Positions 2,754-52,848 of a stretch of 56,515 nt of DNA are shown here, piece by piece (position 1 is the first letter of the stretch; each line of letters begins with the position of its first letter). Under the pieces are notes generated by a model, which saw only the letters and a list, made by a program, of their open reading frames with translations, ran no database searches and was not told where the DNA came from. The DNA lies in contig PFOM01000033.1 of NCBI GenBank assembly GCA_002792535.1, positions 1 to 56,515 on the forward strand. Reading direction: 5' to 3'. This DNA is from Candidatus Peregrinibacteria bacterium CG_4_10_14_0_2_um_filter_38_24 (GTDB lineage Bacteria > Patescibacteriota > Gracilibacteria > UBA1369 > LOWO2-01-FULL-3). A program made the translations under genes and the position numbers.

Positions 2754-3503
2754 ATGTGGACTTATCTTTTATTATTTTTGAGTATTTCGCTTTTTGTCGG
2801 CGTGTTTGCTCGCAGGGCTTATGTTTTGAAGGTTAAAAAGAATGAACCTCCTGTTCAAAAAAAATCGCTTATAGATGATGAGCCTCTCGATATTGATGAA
2901 AATAAAAAACTTTCAAAACAAGAAAAAAGCGATATTTCCGAGCTGTGTGAAAAGGCTGACGTGAAGCTTAAAGTTGGGGAAGAGGAGGAAGCTATAAAGT
3001 TGCTCGTGCAGGCTTTGGCTGTTGATCCTGCAAATACTCCGGCTCAACAAAAACTTGCGATGCTGTATATGCAAAAACAAATGTATTCTGCGGCGACGGC
3101 TCTTTTTAAGCAACTTGGCGAGCTTACAAATGACGCAGTTCACTATAGTAATCTTGGGTTGGCGCTTTATCAACAACAGGAGTTTGAGGCGGCAAAAGAG
3201 GCTTACCAGAGGGCTGTAGCGCTTGATCCTTCTCGTCCACAAAGGTTTATCAGTCTTGCGCAGGTTTACAGAAGCTTGGACCAACTTTCAAACGCCGTTG
3301 TTGCGGCAAATAAAGCTCACGACATGGATCCGGAGAATATGGATTTTTTATTTTTACTTGCTGATTTATACGTGGATTCGAAAAATTACGATGAGTCCGT
3401 GAGTGTTTTAACTAAAATTATAGAGGCTGACCCAGGTAACACCGAAGCAAAGACCTACTTAAAGAAAGTCAAAAAGGCTAAAAGCGAGGAAGAGAAAGTT
3501 TAA
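2754..3503 (+). CDS. TPR-repeat protein with N-terminal membrane anchor
   Basis: N-terminal hydrophobic helix; TPR motifs such as AVHYSNLGLALYQQQEFEAAKEAYQRAVALDPSRPQ. Confidence 0.8.
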   Translation: MWTYLLLFLSISLFVGVFARRAYVLKVKKNEPPVQKKSLIDDEPLDIDENKKLSKQEKSDISELCEKADVKLKVGEEEEAIKLLVQALAVDPANTPAQQKLAMLYMQKQMYSAATALFKQLGELTNDAVHYSNLGLALYQQQEFEAAKEAYQRAVALDPSRPQRFISLAQVYRSLDQLSNAVVAANKAHDMDPENMDFLFLLADLYVDSKNYDESVSVLTKIIEADPGNTEAKTYLKKVKKAKSEEEKV

Positions 3504-4321
3504 TGATTCGTTTGCTCTAAAACGGCTTCTACTGAGGCGACGATGCGTTTTCCCGCTAAATGTATGGAAGATCGTGTTTCTCCAGGACTTGTTTTTTCCG
3601 GAAGAGTCGTTCCGGCGTCAAACTTTATGTTTAGTACCGTTAAGACCTTCACCTTTCTCCCTTTTTGGTCAGTAACTTCTCCCAGATAACCTGTGTCCAT
3701 TTCTGCTGTTCCCATTTTTGCCCCCCTTATGTCTGAGCCATGAAGAGCCGAGCATGACAAATCCGCTAAAGAAAAATCTACGTTTCGAAGGTCTGCGCCT
3801 CTTAAGCTTGCTGAGGATATCATAGCGTTTGAACAATTTGCTCCTTGTAAATTTGCTTCTTCTAAATTTGAACCAATGAAGCTTGTTCTTTGTAAATTTG
3901 CGCCACTCAAGTTTACTCCGCTAAGAGTTTTTTGCTCAAAACGTTTGCCTGAAAAATCTGGCTTCCATTGTGGGAACCGACCCCTCAATGCGTTAAATGC
4001 CGGTATACTTGTACAAAGAAGCGTTTCTCCCGCCGCGTTTAATTGTTCATTTATGTCTTGCTTAGATAAATCTATAATTGAAACAACTGTTCCCTCAACT
4101 GTTCCCTCAACTGTTCCCTCGACTGTTCCCTCGACTCTTTCCCCTGTTTCAAGTGTCATCGCTAAAACTTGCCCTTCTAAAGGCGTTGCCTCCTTGGCTT
4201 GCGTATCGGGTTTCGGCCTGGCACGACCAAAGCCTCTCAACACTCTGGGTTGATGACCAGGTTTTGGCCCAACGTTAACCACGGGTTTTTCCTCTTCTGT
4301 TATAGCTTCCGACATCGTCAT
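3500..4321 (-). CDS. pentapeptide-repeat protein
   Basis: LSGVNLSGANLQRTSFIGSNLEEANLQGANCSNAMISSASLRGADLRNVDFSLADLS; upstream EGTV repeat linker. Confidence 0.8.
   Translation of the reverse strand: MTMSEAITEEEKPVVNVGPKPGHQPRVLRGFGRARPKPDTQAKEATPLEGQVLAMTLETGERVEGTVEGTVEGTVEGTVVSIIDLSKQDINEQLNAAGETLLCTSIPAFNALRGRFPQWKPDFSGKRFEQKTLSGVNLSGANLQRTSFIGSNLEEANLQGANCSNAMISSASLRGADLRNVDFSLADLSCSALHGSDIRGAKMGTAEMDTGYLGEVTDQKGRKVKVLTVLNIKFDAGTTLPEKTSPGETRSSIHLAGKRIVASVEAVLEQTNH
4087..4134. repeat. 12-bp tandem repeat ACTGTTCCCTC(A/G), 4 copies plus a degenerate fifth
   Basis: consecutive 12-mers read directly; encode EGTV on the minus strand. Confidence 0.95.
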
Positions 4322-13449: not shown

Positions 13450-15663
13450 ATGCTTGAAAGAGGGGAAACAGAGAGGGGTGGATTTTTTGAGAGGGTTCTG
13501 TCGAGGGCAAAAAATGCTTTAGAAAGAGCTACAATGGTCGTGCCTAAAAATATTTCAGTTTCGCATGAGTGTGTTGGCGGTGAGAATGGCGAGGCTGGCG
13601 AGGTTGGAAAATTCCCTGAGTTGACGGGCGCAAATCACGCTTGGTGGGTTGGGAAAATCCCGAAAAAGAAAAGTGAGCGCAGGGATTGTATTTATTCGCG
13701 TGAATTTATTGAGGCTTCTTTGGAGGTTTTGTTCGAGAATTTGGGAAAAGGTGAACGGGCGCAAATTTGCATGGCGCCTTGCTTTAGCAGATATTTTAAT
13801 GGTGCAGATGACTCCAGAACAGGTTTTTCAAATGATGAAGCGAAGGCTTTTATAAGAAAGGTTGTTGAAAAAAGATTTCCTAATTCCCGTGACGATTTGG
13901 ATGTTTTTTGTGTTGAAAAAATGCCTCTACACGAAGATCTTTTTTCTGAACTAGAGAGGGCTTTTGATTCTGAAAAAGGGGTTGTTGACGTTGAGCAGGT
14001 TTTTGAGGCCGAGGATGAGGACCTAAATAAAGGCGAATTTGATATTTCTCAGAGACCGACTTCTTTCAATATCGCGATGTTTTTGTACAAAATTTCGAAG
14101 GAGAACGAGGCTTTGTTTCAGTTTTTCAGGCATGCTGTGCCCGGACAAATGAGGCCCGATTTTGATGCGGAACCTTCTTCGAGAGATTATTATGCTTTGG
14201 TGGAGATTTCTGTTCGTTTGGCGGAAATTTTGAACGGCAGATATATTCATGGAGGAGCCGACAGGCAAAGGAAATACGATGGATTTATTGGGGACATAGT
14301 TGATAGGGCAAATCCGAAAAAAGGAAAATTTTTCAAGAATAAAACGATTTTTTCAGGGCTTGAGCCTCTGATAGAGCTTTTTAAAGGGAAAAAGTTTGAA
14401 ACTTTGCATTTTGACACGAAAAAAAATCCTTACAAAGTGAAGGCTGACAGGGGGATTGCAAGGACACGAATTGCTATTGCCGGAGTGCTTGCGGCGGCGG
14501 CGGTTATTGTTCCGAAATTTGGATTTGATGCGGCGGCGGAATATCGTAAAAAGGCTAACGTAAGGGGTAATTCTGTTGTCATGCTAAAGTTTTTGGACGA
14601 TGCAGTTGATGGCAAATGCTTGGATTATGATCAATGTAAATGGGGAATGAGGGGAGGGACAGCTTTGAAAAATATTATAAATGAGGCGTTGCTTCAGGTT
14701 TCTGTCAGATATGGACTAAGTGATGATCAGATTTTTGAGATTCAAAGTGTGTTTTTTGCTTTCATGTTGGCCAATCGGGATTCATTAGGCGGGCTTGGGG
14801 ATGACAATTCTAAGCTTATAGCGTTGGTTGATAAATTTATGCATGATCCCATGGCGATGGCTAAACTTTGGGATATTGGGGTGAAATGTGATGAGTTTTA
14901 TTCGAAACTGAAGCCTTATGAGGCCGAACTTGCGAGAATGGCGAAAGGTGGGAAGGCTCAAAGGCAAGCGAAGGGGACGAAGTCGTCTTTATTGCAATGT
15001 GGCGAAGTTAATGAGAGGGTTAGAGCTGTTTATTGCCAATGTGTCGAGTTGGAAGACCTTGGTGTTTTTTCTGCGTCAAAGATAAGCCCTGAGCGTTATC
15101 AGGTTTCTGTTTGTAAAGGCGGGCAGAAAGGAGATGTGCTTGTGGCAAAGCTTGAATATGGGGTTTATGGAGATTTTGTTGAGGATGGGCGTTCTTTATG
15201 GGAGAGAGTTAGGAGTTGGTATTATATTTCCAGAATGGACAGAGGGGTCGAATATTCTTCTTCATTGGTCGAGGAAAAGGTTGCGAAGGCGTATGTGGAC
15301 ACGAGAAGAAAGGCTATGCTTGCCGTTATCCCCGATAGGTTTAAAGATTTTATCTATAAAGCTTGTGATCCGCAGAATTATTCTGACCCAAGATTTTTTG
15401 ATACAAAAGTGCCTGCGGCTAGCGTAACCGGAATGAGAGTTTATTCTGTGAAGGATCCTTTCGGGGAATTTGAGTATGAGATTTTGATTAGTGGTGATTG
15501 CGAGAAGGTTGCCGACAGGCTTTTTTGTGGGCAAACTCTTTTGGCGAGAAAGCCCGGGGAAAAGGATTTTACTCTTGGTGGGGCAATGGATTTTGCACAG
15601 CGTTATCTGGACATAATGCATTCGCATTGGAGGGGGCCAACTAAATGCAAATCAGGTTCTTGA
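13450..15663 (+). CDS. hypothetical protein with one central hydrophobic segment
   Basis: long ORF with strong promoter; IAIAGVLAAAAVIVPKFGF in the middle; no family recognised. Confidence 0.75.
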   Translation: MLERGETERGGFFERVLSRAKNALERATMVVPKNISVSHECVGGENGEAGEVGKFPELTGANHAWWVGKIPKKKSERRDCIYSREFIEASLEVLFENLGKGERAQICMAPCFSRYFNGADDSRTGFSNDEAKAFIRKVVEKRFPNSRDDLDVFCVEKMPLHEDLFSELERAFDSEKGVVDVEQVFEAEDEDLNKGEFDISQRPTSFNIAMFLYKISKENEALFQFFRHAVPGQMRPDFDAEPSSRDYYALVEISVRLAEILNGRYIHGGADRQRKYDGFIGDIVDRANPKKGKFFKNKTIFSGLEPLIELFKGKKFETLHFDTKKNPYKVKADRGIARTRIAIAGVLAAAAVIVPKFGFDAAAEYRKKANVRGNSVVMLKFLDDAVDGKCLDYDQCKWGMRGGTALKNIINEALLQVSVRYGLSDDQIFEIQSVFFAFMLANRDSLGGLGDDNSKLIALVDKFMHDPMAMAKLWDIGVKCDEFYSKLKPYEAELARMAKGGKAQRQAKGTKSSLLQCGEVNERVRAVYCQCVELEDLGVFSASKISPERYQVSVCKGGQKGDVLVAKLEYGVYGDFVEDGRSLWERVRSWYYISRMDRGVEYSSSLVEEKVAKAYVDTRRKAMLAVIPDRFKDFIYKACDPQNYSDPRFFDTKVPAASVTGMRVYSVKDPFGEFEYEILISGDCEKVADRLFCGQTLLARKPGEKDFTLGGAMDFAQRYLDIMHSHWRGPTKCKSGS

Positions 15664-16380
15664 AAATTCCCAATTCATCTCGAAGATTTGTTTTTGCATC
15701 TTGTAAAATTCCGGATGATGGATTCTTACACATGTTAGTTCTCCGCTTGAATCAAACAAAACTACGTGATCTTCGTAAAGGAAGGATGTCGTGTTGAATA
15801 GAAATTTTTTGTTTATGAATCTTGTTTCGCGATTTGATTTTTTGTCTGATTTTTGGAAATTTTTTGTGAGCTTGGTTTCTTGCAAAAGCAGGCGAACTTT
15901 GATGTTTGATTTGATTCGTTCTTTCGTCCAATCTTCTTCGCGCACTGTATCAATTCCGTCGTAAAAGCGATCCAAGTGCATCCAGCCGAGGAGTTCTTTT
16001 GGCCTTGTTCTGAGGATATCTTCGTACATTTCGCGATAACCTTCGATACCTTTGTAATAATTTATTTGAAGACCTTCCCAGTGTTTTGTTGAGGTTTGAA
16101 GTTCTTTTACGAGTTTTTCTGCGGTGGAGAGGCGTTCTTTTTCTTGGTGGAAAAGTTTGTTTACGTCGTCGATTGCGTAGTAGGCGTTGTTGCCGTTTTT
16201 GAAAGAGAGGATCAGGTTTTTTTCGAGTAGTGTGTTTAGAATATCGTAGATAGAGGTGCGCTTTATCTTTGTAAGACGGGCAAGTGTTGATGCGGCGGAG
16301 GGGCCAATTTTGTGTAGCGTAAGGTATACGAGAGTTTCTTTGTCCGAGAATCCCAGTTTTTTTAAGTGTTGTTCTACCAT
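15652..16380 (-). CDS. TrmB-family transcriptional regulator
   Basis: MVEQHLKKLGFSDKETLVYLTLHKIGPSAASTLARLTKIKRTSIYDILNTLLEKNLI. Confidence 0.85.
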   Translation of the reverse strand: MVEQHLKKLGFSDKETLVYLTLHKIGPSAASTLARLTKIKRTSIYDILNTLLEKNLILSFKNGNNAYYAIDDVNKLFHQEKERLSTAEKLVKELQTSTKHWEGLQINYYKGIEGYREMYEDILRTRPKELLGWMHLDRFYDGIDTVREEDWTKERIKSNIKVRLLLQETKLTKNFQKSDKKSNRETRFINKKFLFNTTSFLYEDHVVLFDSSGELTCVRIHHPEFYKMQKQIFEMNWEFSRT

Positions 16381-16519
16381 AGTGTTGATTTATTTCGACA
16401 CAGAAAATATAGCGGTTTTTATGCTTGAAGCCAAGGGTTTTTGGTGTTGGGTGGTTGACGTGTTGATAAAAATAGTATATTTAGGTATCTTTAGTTTTGG
16501 GTGAATTTGTGAAAGTTTT

Positions 16520-18133
16520 ATGGAAAAAAATTGTAAAAAATGTGGAGTTGGGTTTGAAATTGCGGAGAGCCCCGTGTGTTTTGATTGTAATAAAAAGGCG
16601 CATTTTTGTATGAGAAATGAGAGAACTCTTTATAACCGAAAATGTGATGAGACAGGGGAAAATATGGTTTCGATGTTTCCGCAAAATAGCCCTTACAAAG
16701 TTTATAAGAGTAATTTTTGGCACGGAGATAAATGGGACTCATTGGATTACGGAAAAGATTTCGATTTTTCTAGGTCGTTCTTTGAACAGTTTAATGAGCT
16801 TATGTTAGCGGTCCCGAAGTTTAATTTGTTTAGTTGGCAAAATGAAAATAGTGATTATTGTAATATAACTGGTTGGAATAAAAATTGTTATTTAGTTTTT
16901 GGTGGAGATTTTAATCAGGATGTTCAATATGGGACGCTGTGTTTTTATAATGAGAATTGTTTGGATATTGATTACAGCGATAAAAATAAAGAATGTTATT
17001 TTTTAAATGATTGTGGGAATTGCTATGCTTGTCAGTATGTTTTTGATTGTGAGAATTGCCATGATTGCTTTTACGCAAGCGATTTAACGGGGTGTAGTGA
17101 ATGTGTTTTGTGTACTGGTTTGGTGAGAAAATCTTACTGTGTTTTGAATAAACAATATTCGAAAGAAGAGTATTTTGAGAAGAAAAAAACTTTGATAAAT
17201 GGTTCACTCAAGCAAAGGCAGGAAAATTGGAATGCTTTTTTGAAATTGCGTGACGGAAGAATTGTGAAAGCAACGCACAATGTTTTTTCGGAAAATTGTG
17301 TTGGTGATTATGTGAAAAATTCTAAGAATTGTGAATGGGTTTTTGATTGTTTTAATTCCGAGGATGTGTCTAACGCAATGATGGTTGTGGGGCTTAAGGA
17401 TGGGAAATGCGTGGATTATGCCGGCCATGAAAGTGAGCTTGTTTTTGACTCAATGACTGTTGCAAAATGTAACAATGTTGCTCATTCATTTTCTGTTATG
17501 AATAGTTCGGATATTTTATATTGCGATACTCTTTTTTCTTGTCGTGATTGCTTTGGATGCACGGGGCTAAAAAATAAACAGTATTGTGTTTTCAATAAAC
17601 AATATTCGAGAGAAGAATATGAAGTTTTGAAAGTAAAAATTGTTGAGTATATGAAAAAAACTGGTGAATTTGGTGAGTTTTTTCCTGCATATGTTTCTTG
17701 TTTTGGTTACAATGAATCGACTGCAAATTTGTATTATCCTTTGACGAAAGAAGAAGCCATTCCTCAGGGATTTAAGTGGACTGAGATTCCCGAAAACCAT
17801 TATCAAGGAGAAAAAACGATCCTTGCCGGAGAGCTTACTGATGACATAAAAGAGGTTTCTGAGGATATTTTAAGTCGACCAATTCAGTGTGAAAAATCCG
17901 GAAAACTTTTCAAAATTACACCAAAGGAATTCGCGTTTTATAAGAGGCATAATTTGCCGATTCCGAGACTTCATTCAGAAGAAAGACATGCTATTCGTCT
18001 GGCGATGAGGAACCCTAAAAAGCTTTGGGGGCGGGTTTGTATGAAGTGCGGTAAGTGTATAGAGACGAGTTATGCGCCTGAGAGACTGGAGAAAGTTTAT
18101 TGTGAAGAATGTTATTTAAAAGAAATTTATTAA
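16520..18133 (+). CDS. Cys-rich repeat / zinc-ribbon protein (paralog 1)
   Basis: N-terminal CKKCGVGFEI; repeated CxxCxGLxxKxYCxxNKxYSxEEYE; C-terminal VYCEECYLKEIY. Confidence 0.8.
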   Translation: MEKNCKKCGVGFEIAESPVCFDCNKKAHFCMRNERTLYNRKCDETGENMVSMFPQNSPYKVYKSNFWHGDKWDSLDYGKDFDFSRSFFEQFNELMLAVPKFNLFSWQNENSDYCNITGWNKNCYLVFGGDFNQDVQYGTLCFYNENCLDIDYSDKNKECYFLNDCGNCYACQYVFDCENCHDCFYASDLTGCSECVLCTGLVRKSYCVLNKQYSKEEYFEKKKTLINGSLKQRQENWNAFLKLRDGRIVKATHNVFSENCVGDYVKNSKNCEWVFDCFNSEDVSNAMMVVGLKDGKCVDYAGHESELVFDSMTVAKCNNVAHSFSVMNSSDILYCDTLFSCRDCFGCTGLKNKQYCVFNKQYSREEYEVLKVKIVEYMKKTGEFGEFFPAYVSCFGYNESTANLYYPLTKEEAIPQGFKWTEIPENHYQGEKTILAGELTDDIKEVSEDILSRPIQCEKSGKLFKITPKEFAFYKRHNLPIPRLHSEERHAIRLAMRNPKKLWGRVCMKCGKCIETSYAPERLEKVYCEECYLKEIY

Positions 18134-18152
18134 AATATTTTGATTAAAAAAT

Positions 18153-19856
18153 ATGCAAAAAATTTGTAAACAATGCGGAGTTGATTTTGAAATTACGGAG
18201 GATGATTTGAAGTTTTATGATAAGGTTTCTCCTCTAGTTAAAGGCAAAAAGTACGTGATGCCAAGTCCGACGCATTGTCCTGATTGTAGACTTATGAGGA
18301 GGCTTGCTTTTCGTAATGAGAAAAATTTGTATAAGAGAAATTGTGATCTTTGTGGAAAGAGTGGAATCTTTGTTTTTCCGGAAAATTCTAAATTTCCCGT
18401 CTATTGTTTGGATTGTTTTTGGAGTGATAAATGGGATCCGTTGAGTTTTGGACGCGATTATGATTTTTCGTCTTCATTTTTTGAGCAGTTTAAAAAACTT
18501 ATGGAAAGTGTTCCGAAAATGGGACTTTATCAATTTAATAATGAGAACTCAGGATTTAATAGTTTTCTTGCTTATAGTAAAAATGTTTACATGAGTCCGG
18601 GAACTTATTTGGGTGAAGATTTGGTCTATTGTAGAAAGAGTCAGCACTCGAAAGATTGTTTGAATTCTATGCTTTTGGATGAGTGTGAATTGACTGAGGG
18701 AAGCGCAAATTCAAGTCATTGTTATAATTGTAAATCTACATTTAATTGTCGAAATTGTTCTGATTGTTTTTATGTTGCCGACTCGATTGGATGCACGAAT
18801 TGTTTTATGTGCAGTGGACTAAATAAGAAAAATTATTGTATAAAAAATAAAGAATATTCCAGGGAAGATTATGAAAAAATTATTGAAGAAAAATTTCAGG
18901 AAAACAGAGAAAATTTGATGAATGAATTTATGGAATTTAATAAAACTATCCCTAAAAAATATCAGAATCAATTGAACTCAGAAAAATCTTCTGGTAATTT
19001 TATTCAAAACTGTAAAAATGCGGAAATGTGTTTTGATGGATTTAATGTTCAGGATTCAAAATATGTCGTTGAATGTGAAGATGTGAAAGATTCCATGGAC
19101 GTAAATATGCATGATAAAAATATTCAACTTTGTTATGAAATGAGTTCTGGAGGTGATAGTAATTATATGTCGAAGTTCTCTTTTTGTACTGTTTTAAGCC
19201 CCGAAAGCGAATACCTTTTTTCGTGTTTTCATGCGGCTAATTGCTTTGGATGTGACGGAATTAATTCAAAAAAGAAAAACTGTATTTTGAATAAACAGTA
19301 TTCTGAAGCGGAATACGAGAGCTTGAAAGCTAAAATTATTGAGCAAATGATTAATAATGGGCGAGCGCACGGCGCGAGCGGAGTCGAGCCTGAACATAAA
19401 GAATATGGAGAGTTTTTCCCGATAGCTATTTCGCCTTTTGCTTACAATGAAACTGTTGCGAGTGATTATTTCCCGATGACAAAAGAGCAGGTTTTAAGTA
19501 AGGGTTGGAGGTGGAAAGACGTAGACCCAAAAGAGTTTTCCAAATCTTCGTTTGTGTTGCCGGATAGGATAGAGGAGACGAAAGATGAGGTGCTTCAGCA
19601 TGTTTTTTCGTGCGAGGAATGCGGAAAAAATTATAAGATTGTTTCGCTGGAGCTGAGTCTTTCAAGGAAAATGAAGATTCCTCTTTCAAAAAAATGTGCT
19701 GATTGTAGGCAAAAGGATTTGTCGCGATTTAAAAATCCGAAGAAACTTTTTGATCGGAATTGTTCTAATTGTGCGGAAAAAATTGTATCCGTCTATTCGT
19801 CTGACAGGCCGGAGATGGTATATTGTGAAAAATGTTATTTGAAGGAGATTTATTAA
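18153..19856 (+). CDS. Cys-rich repeat / zinc-ribbon protein (paralog 2)
   Basis: CKQCGVDFEI; CYNCKSTFNCRNCSDCFYVADSIGCTNCFMCSGLNKKNYCIKNKEYSREDYE; C-terminal VYCEKCYLKEIY. Confidence 0.8.
   Translation: MQKICKQCGVDFEITEDDLKFYDKVSPLVKGKKYVMPSPTHCPDCRLMRRLAFRNEKNLYKRNCDLCGKSGIFVFPENSKFPVYCLDCFWSDKWDPLSFGRDYDFSSSFFEQFKKLMESVPKMGLYQFNNENSGFNSFLAYSKNVYMSPGTYLGEDLVYCRKSQHSKDCLNSMLLDECELTEGSANSSHCYNCKSTFNCRNCSDCFYVADSIGCTNCFMCSGLNKKNYCIKNKEYSREDYEKIIEEKFQENRENLMNEFMEFNKTIPKKYQNQLNSEKSSGNFIQNCKNAEMCFDGFNVQDSKYVVECEDVKDSMDVNMHDKNIQLCYEMSSGGDSNYMSKFSFCTVLSPESEYLFSCFHAANCFGCDGINSKKKNCILNKQYSEAEYESLKAKIIEQMINNGRAHGASGVEPEHKEYGEFFPIAISPFAYNETVASDYFPMTKEQVLSKGWRWKDVDPKEFSKSSFVLPDRIEETKDEVLQHVFSCEECGKNYKIVSLELSLSRKMKIPLSKKCADCRQKDLSRFKNPKKLFDRNCSNCAEKIVSVYSSDRPEMVYCEKCYLKEIY
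19361..19380 (+). repeat. GC-rich 20-mer GCGAGCGCACGGCGCGAGCG inside a CDS
   Basis: exact reverse complement at 56490-56509. Confidence 0.9.
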
Positions 19857-19914: not shown

Positions 19915-19943
19915 TTGACCTTTCCGCTTCAAAATGGTATAAT
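19915..19943 (+). promoter_or_regulatory. sigma70-like promoter
   Basis: TTGACC - 17 nt - TATAAT just upstream of the ATPase gene. Confidence 0.75.
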
Positions 19944-19967
19944 TGAGTACTAATTTAATTGGATTTA

Positions 19968-22184
19968 ATGCGATATTTTCAAGTTGTAGTGCCACAGGGA
20001 GACGACAAGAAAAAAAAGGAATCAATATTTCGAGAGTTTCTGATAAATTTGCATAACATTTTGCATGCACATAAAGTGTCGTTTGAGATGCTTGGATATG
20101 AGCAATATACGTATTTTTTCTGTGCTGTTCCCGATGATCTTTTTGAGACAATGGAGGGATTCTTTTATTCGACTTATCCGGATTGTGAAATCAAGCCGGT
20201 GAATGATTACGTGGATAATTATATTCCTGAAAAAATGGGATTGGCCGGAGCGAGAATTACTTTGGAAATGGGAGACGTTTATCCCTTTAAAACTTATTTA
20301 CATTTTGATGAAGATAGCTTGAGCAGGCTGTTTTCTGTGATTTCGAAGATTGCGACGAAAGAACAGGTTTGGCTTCAAGTTGTGACTAAGCCTGTTGTTC
20401 AAAATGCTTGGTATTTGCTAAAACGTAGGTGGCTTCTTCGATGGAATAGTTTTAAAAAACTTTTTAGTATTAGAGATCGAGTTAGGGCGAAAGATGAACA
20501 TAGTGTTATAAATATTCGAACACAGCAGGCTGTTCATAAATCCAAGGAAGAACCTTTTAAGATTACAATGAGGGCCGGATACGTGAGTAGCACAAAGGAC
20601 GAAGCGAGTAGAAAACTTCACGCGATTGTGAATAGTTTTTTCCAGTTTAATGAGACGGACATTCAATATTTCAAGCCTGTTTATTTGGGGGAAAAGGCTT
20701 TTTTGAGAGAGTATAAGGCTAGAAGTTTTGTGGATGATTTTATTGTCGGGCCGGATGAGCTTGCGACTATTTATCATTTGCCGAACGCTGACGTTGTTCC
20801 GCATATTGTGCATGTACTTGCGAAAAAGTCGGAGGCTCCACAGGATTTGCCGAAGGCTGGAAGTGAAGATGTGAGTGTTTTTGGGACAACTAATTATCAT
20901 AATAATTTCGATGATTTTGGAATAAAACGTGAGGATAGACGCAGACATTTATATGTCGTGGGAAAATCCGGTTCCGGAAAATCGAAGCTTCTTGAGCTTT
21001 TGATTAAGGAAGATATTGAGGCTGGAAAAGGTGTTGCGGTGCTTGATCCGCATGGAGATCTTGTCGACAATGTGATGGAGTTTGTGCCTAAAGAAAGGAT
21101 AAAAGACGTGATTTATTTTGACCCTGCTGATACTAATTTCCCAATCGCTTTTAATCCGATGGAAAATGTGGATGAGGCTTACAAAATGCAGGTGACGATT
21201 GGGTTTATTCAGATTTTCAAAAAACTTTTTGGATCGAATTGGACTGACAGGCTTGAACACGTGCTTAGGTATACGGTTTTGGCTCTTTTGGACAGCCCAA
21301 ATACGACAGTGCTTTCGATTTTGAAAATGCTTACGGACAAGAACTACAGGCAGAATATTGTGTCGAGAATTAAAGATAATGTTGTTAAAAATTTCTGGGT
21401 TTCCGAGTTTGCGGGATGGAGTGAGAAATTCGATGCCGAAGCCATTACTCCGCTTTTGAATAAGGTTGGACAGTTTGTGGCGACAAATATGATTCGTAAT
21501 GTTGTCGGACAGCCGGTGAATAAATTTAACATAAGGGAGGTCATGGATGGGCAGAAAATTTTGTTGATGAAGGTGTCAAAAGGTCTTCTTGGTGAAGAGA
21601 ATAGTGGGCTTATGGGAGCTATGATTATCACAAAATTGTATCAGGCGGCGATGAGTCGTGCCGATATGAAAGAGTCTGATAGAAAGGATTTTTATCTGTA
21701 TGTTGATGAGTTCCAAAATTTTGCTACGGATACTTTTGCTGAGATTTTGTCGGAGGCCAGAAAATATAGACTCAATCTTACGATTGCGCATCAGTATATG
21801 GGGCAGTTGTTGGATGTTGTTAAGAAAACGGTTTTTGGAAATGTCGGTTCTATCATCAGTTTCAGGGTGGGTGCGGATGACGCTGGACCGCTTGCCGCTG
21901 AGTATAATCCGATTTTTAAAGAAAGAGATATTATAAATCTCGGTGTTCGTGAATTTTATTGCAAGATGTCTGTGGATGGAGAAATCAGGGAAGCTTTTTC
22001 CGGAAAAACGTTGTTTGTTCCGAAGGTTACAACTTCTCACGTGAAGGAAATTATTGAAAATTCCAGAAAGACGTATTGTGAAAAACGTGAAGTTGTAGAG
22101 GAAATGTTGGCGAAATGGGATGAGGCAGGTGAGTTTGAATCCGGACCACAGGAAGCGCCGGAATTTGAGGAGCCTTTGATTTAG
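19968..22184 (+). CDS. TraD/VirD4/HerA-like AAA ATPase (type IV secretion coupling-protein-like)
   Basis: YVVGKSGSGKSKLLELLIKEDIEAGKGVAVLDPHGDLVD; YVDEFQNFATDTFAEILSEARKYRLNLTIAHQYMGQL. Track start is TTG at 19959; ATG at 19968. Confidence 0.85.
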   Translation: MRYFQVVVPQGDDKKKKESIFREFLINLHNILHAHKVSFEMLGYEQYTYFFCAVPDDLFETMEGFFYSTYPDCEIKPVNDYVDNYIPEKMGLAGARITLEMGDVYPFKTYLHFDEDSLSRLFSVISKIATKEQVWLQVVTKPVVQNAWYLLKRRWLLRWNSFKKLFSIRDRVRAKDEHSVINIRTQQAVHKSKEEPFKITMRAGYVSSTKDEASRKLHAIVNSFFQFNETDIQYFKPVYLGEKAFLREYKARSFVDDFIVGPDELATIYHLPNADVVPHIVHVLAKKSEAPQDLPKAGSEDVSVFGTTNYHNNFDDFGIKREDRRRHLYVVGKSGSGKSKLLELLIKEDIEAGKGVAVLDPHGDLVDNVMEFVPKERIKDVIYFDPADTNFPIAFNPMENVDEAYKMQVTIGFIQIFKKLFGSNWTDRLEHVLRYTVLALLDSPNTTVLSILKMLTDKNYRQNIVSRIKDNVVKNFWVSEFAGWSEKFDAEAITPLLNKVGQFVATNMIRNVVGQPVNKFNIREVMDGQKILLMKVSKGLLGEENSGLMGAMIITKLYQAAMSRADMKESDRKDFYLYVDEFQNFATDTFAEILSEARKYRLNLTIAHQYMGQLLDVVKKTVFGNVGSIISFRVGADDAGPLAAEYNPIFKERDIINLGVREFYCKMSVDGEIREAFSGKTLFVPKVTTSHVKEIIENSRKTYCEKREVVEEMLAKWDEAGEFESGPQEAPEFEEPLI

Positions 22185-23608: not shown

Positions 23609-24340
23609 ATGTTTGAAAAACTTGTTGAATTCGGGCTTTCGGAAAAAGAAGCAAAAGTTTACTTGGCGTTGATGGAGCTGGGAGAGGCTTCTGTGACTGA
23701 TATTGCAAGAAAGGCGCGAGTTACGAGAACGAATACTTATCATTTGCTTGGGGCTCTTTTGTCTTATGGGCTTGTTGTTGGTGAGCAGGGGGATAGCAAA
23801 ACGATGTTTAGGGCGCAAAAACCTGAGAAGCTTCTTAATTTTGTCAGGGAAAAAATGCACAAGGCGGCGAATAGTTATAGGGAGGCGGAGAGCTTGATGC
23901 CGGAATTTCAATCTCTTTATCGCGATCCTGAACAGAAAACGAAAATCAGGTATTTTGATGGAGTTGAAGGGATTATGTCAATTTATGATGATACTTTGAC
24001 GACAAAATCGAAGATTCTTTCTTATTCTACTTCTGAGGATAAGGATGCCGCACTCCCCGGATTTTTTGGGGAATATTATGAAAAAAAAGCGAAAAAAGGC
24101 ATAGAAACGGAATCTTTTGTGACCGAATCAGGGCTTACGAAAGAGCAAAATGCGAAAATGTTGCCGGAAAGATTTGCGATTTCTTCTGAAATAAATATTT
24201 ATGACAATAAAGTTGCCGTGATTTCATTGAAGGAAAAAACAGGGTTTATTGTAGAAGGAAAAGAGGTGGCGGATACTTTTAAAAAGATGTTCATTTTGGC
24301 TTACGAAAGGGCGGCGCAGTACGACAAGAAAAAGGAGTAG
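23609..24340 (+). CDS. TrmB-family transcriptional regulator
   Basis: MFEKLVEFGLSEKEAKVYLALMELGEASVTDIARKARVTRTNTYHLLGALLSYGLV. Confidence 0.87.
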   Translation: MFEKLVEFGLSEKEAKVYLALMELGEASVTDIARKARVTRTNTYHLLGALLSYGLVVGEQGDSKTMFRAQKPEKLLNFVREKMHKAANSYREAESLMPEFQSLYRDPEQKTKIRYFDGVEGIMSIYDDTLTTKSKILSYSTSEDKDAALPGFFGEYYEKKAKKGIETESFVTESGLTKEQNAKMLPERFAISSEINIYDNKVAVISLKEKTGFIVEGKEVADTFKKMFILAYERAAQYDKKKE

Positions 24341-28765: not shown

Positions 28766-29779
28766 CTAATCTCTAATGATACTTCTTGCTACGATAACGG
28801 TGAACAGAGAGGTTAGGGCGATGCCTACGAAGCTTTCTGCGGCGGCAATGAAGCGAACTGCGCCTACGGCATGATAATCTCCGTAACCGAGGGTTGTGAA
28901 GGTTGTGATGCTAAAATAGAGTGCGTCTAAGAAAGAGTAATCTGTTAATTTTTCGTTGTAGAACATTAAGCTGTCGAAAATTTGAAAAGCGAATGTGCAG
29001 GTTATAACTACAAGGATTGCGGCCATAAAAACTCGAATGAAGGAGGTTCCGTATTTGCAAAGAAGGTCTCCGAAAATATATGAAAAAAATCTGACCGGAT
29101 TCAGGTAAGAAATTCTTTTTCTTTTTGAGATCATTTCTCTGTAATGGAATTCGTCGGCTTGTTCGTGTAAACTTGAGTATTTGTACATTTCTTTGATTTG
29201 CTTGTATTCGATTGCGGCGGAATGGTAATTTTTTGCGGTTTCCGATTTTAGCTCTTTTCCGAAATTGGATTTTTCGTCGATGACTGTTCCGGAGGTTGAA
29301 ATGTCGTCTATGTTTGCATCTACAAGACTGCAATTTGTTATATTTGCATTGATTAAATTTATTTCGTTTAAATCTGAATTTTGGAATGAACAGTCTGTGA
29401 TGTGTGCGTTTTTGAAGTCTGAATGCGATAGTTCGGCGTTTTCAAAATTACAGTCATGAATTTTTCCTTCTTGAAAATTGCAATATCGGAGCATTGCTCC
29501 TTCAAAATGTATGTTTGCTAAAATGGCCAGATTTTCTGAAAATCCGTCATCTTCTTGTACGGAAATTCGAAAATCAAATCCTGAAACTGAAATTCCTCTC
29601 ATGTCTATGCCATTTTCCAATTCCGGATCGTTTATTCCTTCCAGTCCTTTTACTTTTTCACGAAATAAAGCAGGATTTAGGTAACAATGTGTTCTTTTGA
29701 TTGAGGCAACGAGCTTTTTTCCTTTTGCCGTTGTCCATCTTTTGCGGAGAGCATCAAGTTTTTCTTTTGGATATTGCAT
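28766..29779 (-). CDS. pentapeptide-repeat / two-TM ion-channel fusion
   Basis: NAELSHSDFKNAHITDCSFQNSDLNEINLINANITNCSLVDANID, then ALYFSITTFTTLGYGDYHAVGAVRFIAAAESFVGIALTSLFTVIVAR (K+ filter TTLGYGD). Confidence 0.9.
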   Translation of the reverse strand: MQYPKEKLDALRKRWTTAKGKKLVASIKRTHCYLNPALFREKVKGLEGINDPELENGIDMRGISVSGFDFRISVQEDDGFSENLAILANIHFEGAMLRYCNFQEGKIHDCNFENAELSHSDFKNAHITDCSFQNSDLNEINLINANITNCSLVDANIDDISTSGTVIDEKSNFGKELKSETAKNYHSAAIEYKQIKEMYKYSSLHEQADEFHYREMISKRKRISYLNPVRFFSYIFGDLLCKYGTSFIRVFMAAILVVITCTFAFQIFDSLMFYNEKLTDYSFLDALYFSITTFTTLGYGDYHAVGAVRFIAAAESFVGIALTSLFTVIVARSIIRD

Positions 29780-51735: not shown

Positions 51736-52104
51736 ATGAAAAAACTTTTATCAATATTTTTTGTTTCGATGTTTGTTTTTGTTGGATGTGCGCAAAAAAC
51801 ATCAACGACCCCAACAGACACTTCTGAAAAACAGCCTGAAGTAAGCCAAAAAAGTGCCGGTTCAAATGTAGTTATGATTGCTGATTTTTCATTCGCGCCT
51901 AAAACTATAACTGTAAATAGTGGGGACACGGTGGTTTGGAGGCATTGGGATGTTGCCGCACATGATGTTGTTTCTCCCGGACTTTTTAAAAGTCCGATTC
52001 TTGAAAGGGGGAAGGTTTTTTCTTTTAAATTTGAAAAAGCTGGGACGTATGAATATTATTGTGGGATACATCCTTCTATGAGAGGTGTTGTTGTTGTTAA
52101 ATAA
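51736..52104 (+). CDS. cupredoxin-like lipoprotein
   Basis: lipobox FVFVGCAQ; FSFAPKTITVNSGDTVVWRHWDVAAHDVVS ... FEKAGTYEYYCGIHPSMRGVVVV. Confidence 0.87.
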   Translation: MKKLLSIFFVSMFVFVGCAQKTSTTPTDTSEKQPEVSQKSAGSNVVMIADFSFAPKTITVNSGDTVVWRHWDVAAHDVVSPGLFKSPILERGKVFSFKFEKAGTYEYYCGIHPSMRGVVVVK

Positions 52105-52566: not shown

Positions 52567-52848
52567 ATGGAAAATTGTAAACAATGTGGTGGAAAATTTG
52601 AAATTACGAGTGAAGATTTGACGCATCTCTCTCAGCTTTCTCCTGTTTTTGACGGGAAGAAATTTTCTATTCCAAGTCCTAAAAAATGTCCTTCTTGTCG
52701 GCAGCAAAATAGGTTGGCGTTTAGAAATGAAAGAACACTTTATACTCGAAAATGCGATCTTTCCGGAAAACAAATTCTTTCTATTTATTCTCCGGAGCGC
52801 AAAGAAATTGTTTATTGTGAGGAGTGTTATTTGAAGGATTTGTACTGA
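52567..52848 (+). CDS. 93-aa zinc-ribbon protein, minimal paralog of 16520/18153
   Basis: MENCKQCGGKFEITSEDL ... CPSCRQQNRLAFRNERTLYTRKCDLSGKQILSIYSPERKEIVYCEECYLKDLY. Confidence 0.85.
   Translation: MENCKQCGGKFEITSEDLTHLSQLSPVFDGKKFSIPSPKKCPSCRQQNRLAFRNERTLYTRKCDLSGKQILSIYSPERKEIVYCEECYLKDLY

What the first reader, a model, noticed from the sequence alone, without database searches (positions are those of the whole stretch)
16520..19856. Tandem pair of large Cys-rich repeat proteins with a recurring module
Two adjacent ORFs (537 and 567 aa) share a zinc-ribbon head, a Cys-dense middle and an almost invariant tail (VYCE[EK]CYLKEIY). Inside each, a module resembling CxxCxGLxxKxYCxxNKxYSxExYE recurs twice (paralog 1: CVLCTGLVRKSYCVLNKQYSKEEYF and CFGCTGLKNKQYCVFNKQYSREEYE). 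The periodic Cys/Asn pattern suggests a metal-binding or disulfide-bonded solenoid. Similar proteins seem common in CPR genomes, but I know of no established function.
Basis: partly seen in the sequence, partly recalled or inferred. Interest (0 to 1): 0.72.

Follow-up and report, generated by a model that had tools for sequence, protein, structure and literature searches.

The report
Expanded zinc-finger/β-helix proteins with ATPase partner
The two proteins belong to a large, apparently undescribed gene family of tiny candidate-phyla bacteria, built from zinc fingers around an unusually narrow cysteine-lined coil, present in up to about 28 matches per genome, and almost always inherited together with one particular ATPase motor and often a gene regulator, which suggests an uncharacterised molecular system rather than two odd proteins.

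Summary
ORFs 16520-18133 (537 aa) and 18153-19856 (567 aa) are 35% identical paralogues with the quoted motifs. Profile comparison shows an A-B-B'-A' plan: a treble-clef finger pair at each end (E 5e-30 to each other) around two related solenoid modules (E 9e-36). AlphaFold models are confident (pTM 0.90 and 0.89). In module B, Cys falls strictly at every third residue with a 12-residue turn: a very narrow β-helix, with inward positions as in beetle antifreeze protein. No Pfam, NCBIfam, PADLOC or convincing PDB match covers the middle.

The surroundings carry the main result. The family (F) is multicopy (up to 28 tblastn matches per ~1 Mb genome, arrays of up to 7), patchy, and centred on one CPR class. 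F tracks a soluble TraG/VirD4-like ATPase (T1, window 19959-22184): in 287 CPR genomes, T1 is in 19 of 22 F+ genomes and 0 of 265 F- ones, within 5 kb of F in 18 of 19. Arrays are often preceded by a divergent TrmB-like regulator (R) with a TGT-N12-ACA operator. P2 is under purifying selection (dN/dS ~0.12).

Best reading: an uncharacterised co-inherited R-F-T1 system, with F as diversified substrates or adaptors of T1. The linkage is shown; the biochemical role is inferred.

The parts
16520..18133 (+). F gene P1 (537 aa): finger pair - B - B' - tail - finger pair
   Evidence: orthologue 83% identical in G003, none above 42% in G001/G002
18153..19856 (+). F gene P2 (567 aa), same architecture
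   Evidence: orthologues 83% (G001) and 79-80% (G003), dN/dS ~0.12
16520..16726 (+). P1 N-terminal finger pair (outer C5/C8/C20/C23 kept, inner finger degenerate)
16817..17203 (+). P1 solenoid module B (12-residue coils)
17288..17608 (+). P1 solenoid module B'
17870..18130 (+). P1 C-terminal finger pair ending VYCEECYLKEIY
18153..18425 (+). P2 N-terminal treble-clef finger pair
18516..18902 (+). P2 solenoid module B; its last coil carries conserved inward Cys (214, 217, 220; position 211, usually Cys, is Ser here)
18978..19304 (+). P2 solenoid module B'
19593..19853 (+). P2 C-terminal finger pair ending VYCEKCYLKEIY
15652..16380 (-). R: TrmB-like HTH regulator, divergent from P1
   Evidence: PF01978 E 1e-12; divergent R-F arrangement recurrent, Fisher 2e-23
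16383..16400 (.). Operator-like palindrome TGTTGATTTATTTCGACA (TGT-N12-ACA)
   Evidence: scores >=6 in 13 of 23 R-F intergenics against 1.5 expected; only exact match to TGTYGA-N6-TCRACA in the genome
19959..22184 (+). T1: soluble TraG/VirD4-like ATPase (Walker A GKSGSGKS; an ATG start is at 19968)
   Evidence: co-occurrence with F
19915..19943 (+). sigma-70-like promoter before T1 (TTGACC-N17-TATAAT, 11/12)
   Evidence: consensus match only
52567..52848 (+). P3 (93 aa): N-finger fused in frame to C-finger, remnant of a full-length F gene
   Evidence: about 1.35 kb deleted relative to the syntenic 558-codon G002 gene; flanks 90% and 88% identical

Best explanation
P1 and P2 are members of a CPR-specific multigene family (F) that works in a co-inherited set with a dedicated soluble TraG/VirD4-like ATPase (T1) and, at many arrays, a divergently transcribed TrmB-like regulator (R). 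Shown: architecture A-B-B'-A'; 12-residue-turn Cys-lined beta-helix modules; large expansion; purifying selection on P2; co-occurrence and adjacency of F with T1; recurrent divergent R with a palindromic operator. Inferred: the near-invariant terminal zinc fingers are the constant docking ends, the variable acidic solenoids carry target specificity, T1 uses ATP to move, load or remodel F proteins (as substrates or adaptors, alone or with nucleic acid), and R switches F operons on or off in response to a small molecule. Whether F ends up outside the cell is left open.
For: Co-occurrence: T1 (full length, E<=1e-200) in 19 of 22 F+ and 0 of 265 F- genomes of 287 CPR genomes (Fisher 7e-27); 26 of 32 F+ and 0 of 9 F- relatives, with T1 pieces in some exceptions (G020 78%, G028 60%). 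Same-genus pairs change together (G013 both, G023 neither; G015 both, G024 a weak F trace and no T1). Adjacency: F within 300 bp on the same strand in 10 of 19 T1 genomes and within 5 kb in 18 of 19 (coordinates). R divergent to 26 of 48 array heads with a divergent upstream gene, and 11 of 44 TrmB matches genome-wide in six F+ genomes. Operator excess 13 vs 1.5. Structure. Region conservation and charge: fingers +3.9 and +6.1 with 45-47% identity, solenoids -4 each with 34-35%. Selection: P2 dN/dS 0.12, T1 0.05.
Against: No direct evidence that F and T1 touch. T1 has a good promoter-like site of its own. Relatives of T1 exist in all 41 near relatives, including F-free genomes, so F might only share a genomic niche with it. 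Some F+ genomes (G008, G014) show no T1, though they are 84-87% complete. Genomes in the sample are not phylogenetically independent. R also occurs away from F. The solenoids vary by ordinary divergence, not hypervariability.
Confidence: 0.4

Rival explanations
1. F proteins are nucleic-acid binders: basic terminal fingers grip DNA or RNA, the rigid acidic beta-helices act as spacers or DNA-like surfaces, and T1 is a DNA-pumping ATPase (HerA/TrwB-like) in DNA transfer, repair or defence.
For: Finger modules are basic, solenoids acidic; fingers resemble LIM/treble-clef fingers; T1 matches TrwB, HerA and TraD models. Pentapeptide-repeat beta-helices mimic DNA and bind gyrase (PMC8145042).
Against: Treble-clef fingers often bind protein instead (general knowledge); no relaxase recurs near T1 and an integrase domain appears in one of 49 neighbours; no PADLOC match for F; overall pI about 6.
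Confidence: 0.27
2. F proteins are metal stores or buffers: the Cys-lined tube holds Zn(II) or Cu(I), with TrmB-like regulators controlling dosage.
For: Cys about 6.7% of residues, inward at every third position, with a four-Cys last coil in 61 of 105 members.
Against: Most inward Cys are replaced by Ser, Leu, Val or Ala among paralogues; R is TrmB-like, matching a metalloregulator (ArsR/SmtB) model only weakly; it does not explain T1 linkage or some 20 divergent paralogues.
Confidence: 0.12
3. F proteins are secreted disulfide-stiffened surface proteins or adhesins, like the large Cys-rich proteins reported for Ca. Peribacter riflensis.
For: Beetle antifreeze beta-helices with the same coil are extracellular and disulfide-bonded (PMC8038014); Peribacter genomes encode many Cys-rich exported proteins (PMC4736985).
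Against: 154 of 155 F proteins lack any hydrophobic segment; the reported proteins average 1,655 aa and most have predicted signal peptides; zinc fingers at both ends suggest a reducing compartment. T1-mediated export is not excluded.
Confidence: 0.08
4. F is a near-neutral, proliferating or decaying gene family with no important role; linkage to T1 reflects one ancestral locus.
For: Several copies in the window's genome are broken, and P3 is a deletion remnant.
Against: P2 is under strong purifying selection; most orthologues are intact across the genus; joint presence and absence with T1 across distant families.
Confidence: 0.06

Closest known systems
Small treble-clef proteins, Pfam zf_Tbcl (PF13451) and zf_Tbcl_2 (PF23477; NCBIfam TIGR04272)
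   Same: The terminal finger pairs match these models weakly (Pfam E 1e-4 to 3e-3) with CxxC spacing
   Different: All matches are below the curated cut-offs; the 380-residue middle is not part of these families
Beetle hyperactive antifreeze proteins (TmAFP/DhbAFP)
   Same: 12-residue coil with every third residue inward and Cys prominent among inward residues
   Different: No TCT ice-binding rows; Cys spacing peaks at 3, 9 and 12 rather than 6 within a coil; probably cytosolic; Foldseek did not list them among its best matches; resemblance, not homology
Pentapeptide-repeat proteins (MfpA, Qnr)
   Same: Small-residue-lined beta-helix rod, often acidic
   Different: Their coil is four pentapeptides; here it is four tripeptides; no Pfam pentapeptide match
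TraG/VirD4/TrwB type IV coupling ATPases (for T1)
   Same: RecA-like ATPase with Walker A/B and T4SS-DNA_transf, TrwB and TraG-D_C matches
   Different: T1 lacks a predicted membrane segment, scores far below the NCBIfam cut-offs, and a secretion channel partner was not shown
TrmB family sugar-responsive regulators (for R)
   Same: N-terminal HTH plus adjoining region match TrmB/TrmBL1 (residues 4-131)
   Different: 242 aa against about 340; below the equivalog cut-offs; ligand unknown
Cys-rich exported proteins of Ca. Peribacter riflensis (PMC4736985)
   Same: High-Cys protein sets in a related CPR group
   Different: Those are about 1,655 aa with predicted signal peptides; F proteins are about 550 aa without

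Membership tests
zf_Tbcl / zf_Tbcl_2 (terminal modules only) | Score above Pfam gathering cut-off | tested here: not met
   19.5 vs 24 and 22.2 vs 27 bits
zf_Tbcl / zf_Tbcl_2 (terminal modules only) | Paired CxxC ligands | tested here: met
   all four Cys in 98/105 (N1) and 104/105 (C2) members
Pentapeptide-repeat proteins | Five-residue repeat, at least eight in a row | tested here: not met
   period is 3 and 12, not 5 or 20; no Pfam match
Beetle antifreeze protein | 12-residue coil, every third residue inward | tested here: met
   definition from PMC8038014
Beetle antifreeze protein | TCTxSxNCxxAx repeats with TxT ice-binding face | tested here: not met
   outward positions are aromatic, D/N or K, not Thr
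Left-handed hexapeptide beta-helix (GlmU, LpxD) | Superposable fold | tested here: not met
   Foldseek E 7e-4 for P1 but TM-score 0.08 and rmsd 18; no match for P2
Type IV secretion coupling protein (T1) | RecA-like domain with Walker A and B | tested here: met
Type IV secretion coupling protein (T1) | N-terminal membrane anchor | tested here: not met
   no hydrophobic segment
Type IV secretion coupling protein (T1) | Associated secretion channel genes | tested here: inconclusive
   none recurrent near T1; the rest of the genome was not surveyed
T4SS effector (F) | Translocation through a secretion channel | not testable with these tools
   needs experiment
TrmB-like regulator (R) | TrmB HTH above Pfam cut-off | tested here: met
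   48.1 vs 25.6 bits
Anti-phage defence systems | F or R matches a PADLOC model | tested here: not met
   (T1 shows only generic HerA-type and mad8 similarity)

The most novel reading that the evidence does not exclude
F is a repertoire of proteins that the cell exports or injects into its host or neighbours with T1 as a dedicated motor: constant zinc-finger ends as the delivery tag, variable Cys-lined beta-helices as the working part, and TrmB-like regulators sensing host metabolites. This would be a new kind of delivery system in episymbiotic bacteria.
Probability: 0.15. Interest if true: 0.88.

Novelty: categorically new. Interest (0 to 1): 0.63.

Why it matters
A genome of about 1.1 Mb that has discarded much of its metabolism yet keeps 10-28 matches to one family must get something from it. 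The family has no described fold or function, and it now comes with handles: a partner ATPase, a regulator and a predicted operator. That turns an anonymous hypothetical protein into a system that can be tested by biochemistry without cultivating the host.

Tried and rejected
Viral or mobile origin: one short fragment in the IMG/VR hits; phage and plasmid collections gave only short, weak finger-level matches. Defence annotation: no PADLOC match for F. Known fold: no PDB match for P2; P1 hits to GlmU/LpxD do not superpose. Sequence relatives in PDB: only weak finger-type matches. A general palindrome score gave a small excess (6.43 vs 5.86, sd 0.12; that script ended with an unrelated error); the specific TGT...ACA test was clearer. 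Neighbour domains around T1 showed no recurrent third partner. Literature searches found no description of the family.

Full report
WHAT IS THERE. Two adjacent + strand ORFs, P1 (16520-18133, 537 aa) and P2 (18153-19856, 567 aa), 19 bp apart, 35% identical over their full length. Pfam sees only weak treble-clef finger matches at the ends, and NCBIfam adds only weak finger-type matches plus marginal ones.

ARCHITECTURE. An alignment of 105 full-length relatives was cut into regions and compared as profiles. The N-terminal ~90 residues match the C-terminal ~90 (E 5e-30), and residues 105-255 match 270-400 (E 9e-36). The plan is A-B-B'-tail-A'. AlphaFold gave pLDDT 88.7 and pTM 0.90 for P2, 89.8 and 0.89 for P1. 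P1 shows regular short strands repeating every 12 residues. Independently of the models, Cys in module B keeps a strict three-residue register, and Asn/Asp peaks at lag 12. Aligning on the last coil shows inward positions at every third residue, filled by Cys or by Ser, Leu, Val, Thr, Ala or Gly. This is the in/out pattern reported for beetle antifreeze beta-helices (PMC8038014), without their ice-binding Thr rows. Foldseek found no PDB match for P2; for P1 it found left-handed hexapeptide enzymes at E 7e-4, but with TM-score 0.08 they do not superpose. I did not have coordinates, so handedness is not established.

METAL SITES. The outermost finger at each end keeps all four Cys in 98/105 and 104/105 members; the inner fingers keep them in only 31/105 and 48/105. 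So about two structural zinc sites per chain are well supported. The solenoid Cys are mostly replaceable; the last coil of B, with four inward Cys in 61/105, is the best candidate for an extra site.

A LARGE FAMILY. The window's own genome (1,102,626 bases, 43 contigs) has 18 matching stretches in about 11 loci. Of 41 relatives, 32 have the family, up to 28 matches in one genome. In an even sample of 287 CPR genomes, 22 have it: 17 of 26 in the window's class, 5 of 261 elsewhere. Paralogues in one genome are about 40% identical while orthologues between species of the genus are usually 75-92%, so these are old, distinct genes. P2 evolves under purifying selection: dN/dS about 0.12 and 0.13 in two comparisons.

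TURNOVER. P1 has an orthologue in G003 but not in G001 or G002, where other paralogues are nearest. Several copies in the window's genome are broken. The 93-aa ORF at 52567-52848 is an internal deletion: its DNA flanks match a full-length G002 gene at 90% and 88%, with about 1.35 kb missing between the N- and C-finger coding repeats. A split variant on contig C8 (B-B' plus one finger pair, then a separate finger-pair ORF) is kept at 72-89% identity in G001 and G002.

LINK TO AN ATPASE. The next gene downstream, T1 (19959-22184), is a TraG/VirD4-like ATPase with Walker A and B and no hydrophobic segment. Weaker relatives, mostly in larger ORFs, occur in all 41 near relatives. T1 itself (full length, E<=1e-200) is in 19 of the 287 genomes; all 19 have F, out of 22 that do, and none of 265 F-free genomes has it (Fisher 7e-27). 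Among relatives, 26 of 32 F+ and 0 of 9 F- (the 26 include one contig-edge fragment, G032); a follow-up found T1 pieces at contig edges or broken in G020 and G028 and T1-like proteins in G196 and G295. Within genera g11 and g13 one species has both and the other lacks T1 and has no F or only a weak trace; two distant families (G053, G304) have both. By coordinates, F lies within 300 bp on the same strand of T1 in 10 of 19 genomes and within 5 kb in 18 of 19 (counted by hand). Fisher values ignore phylogeny and are guides only.

LINK TO A REGULATOR. R (15652-16380, minus) is TrmB-like. Of 48 array heads with a divergent upstream gene, 26 have R. That sample was drawn around F, so I also counted TrmB matches genome-wide in six F+ genomes: 11 of 44 are divergently next to F (hand count). 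The R-side of R-F intergenics carries a TGT-N12-ACA palindrome in 13 of 23 cases against 1.5 expected; in the window it is 16383-16400, the only exact genome match to that half-site pattern. R genes far from F were not tested for the motif.

HOW IT MAY WORK. Linkage of F with T1 and R is shown. That T1 acts on F, that the fingers are the docking ends and that the solenoids carry specificity are inferences from where conservation and charge lie and from what TraG/VirD4-type ATPases do. Nucleic-acid binding is the nearest rival; metal storage and surface roles are less likely.

NOVELTY. No library used here names the family beyond its fingers, and no paper found describes it. The Cys-rich Peribacter proteins of PMC4736985 are larger and exported, a different thing. 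The components resemble known kinds; the fold usage, expansion and R-F-T1 association do not match a known system. I mark it categorically new on that ground, with function unproven.

Noticed in passing
L146:2642-4207 (G000 contig C8) and orthologues in G001 C5, G002 C7: Conserved split variant: B-B' followed by one finger pair, then a separate small finger-pair ORF; suggests the finger pair works as an independent module.
   Followed up: partly
window 23609-24340 (+): A second TrmB-like regulator shortly downstream of T1; L050 has a similar F-F-T1-...-R order.
   Followed up: no
window 13450-15663 (+): 737-aa ORF with no Pfam match and a weak stretch of similarity to a Cas12a model (22 bits), probably chance.
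   Followed up: no
window 3500-4321 (-) and 28766-29779 (-): Two pentapeptide-repeat proteins, the second joined to an ion-channel domain.
   Followed up: no
window 51736-52101 (+): Cupredoxin-like protein shortly upstream of the P3 remnant.
   Followed up: no
L050: A contig binned as Nitrospirota carries F-F-T1 with 51% (F) and 75% (T1) identity to the window; mis-binning or transfer.
   Followed up: partly
own genome contigs C37, C22, C18, C6:52567: Several F copies are broken or partly deleted while orthologues in sister species are intact, so this lineage seems to be losing copies.
   Followed up: partly
window 19915-19943 (+): Strong sigma-70-like promoter match (11 of 12, with TG before the second hexamer) just before T1, so T1 may not depend on the F operon for transcription.
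   Followed up: no
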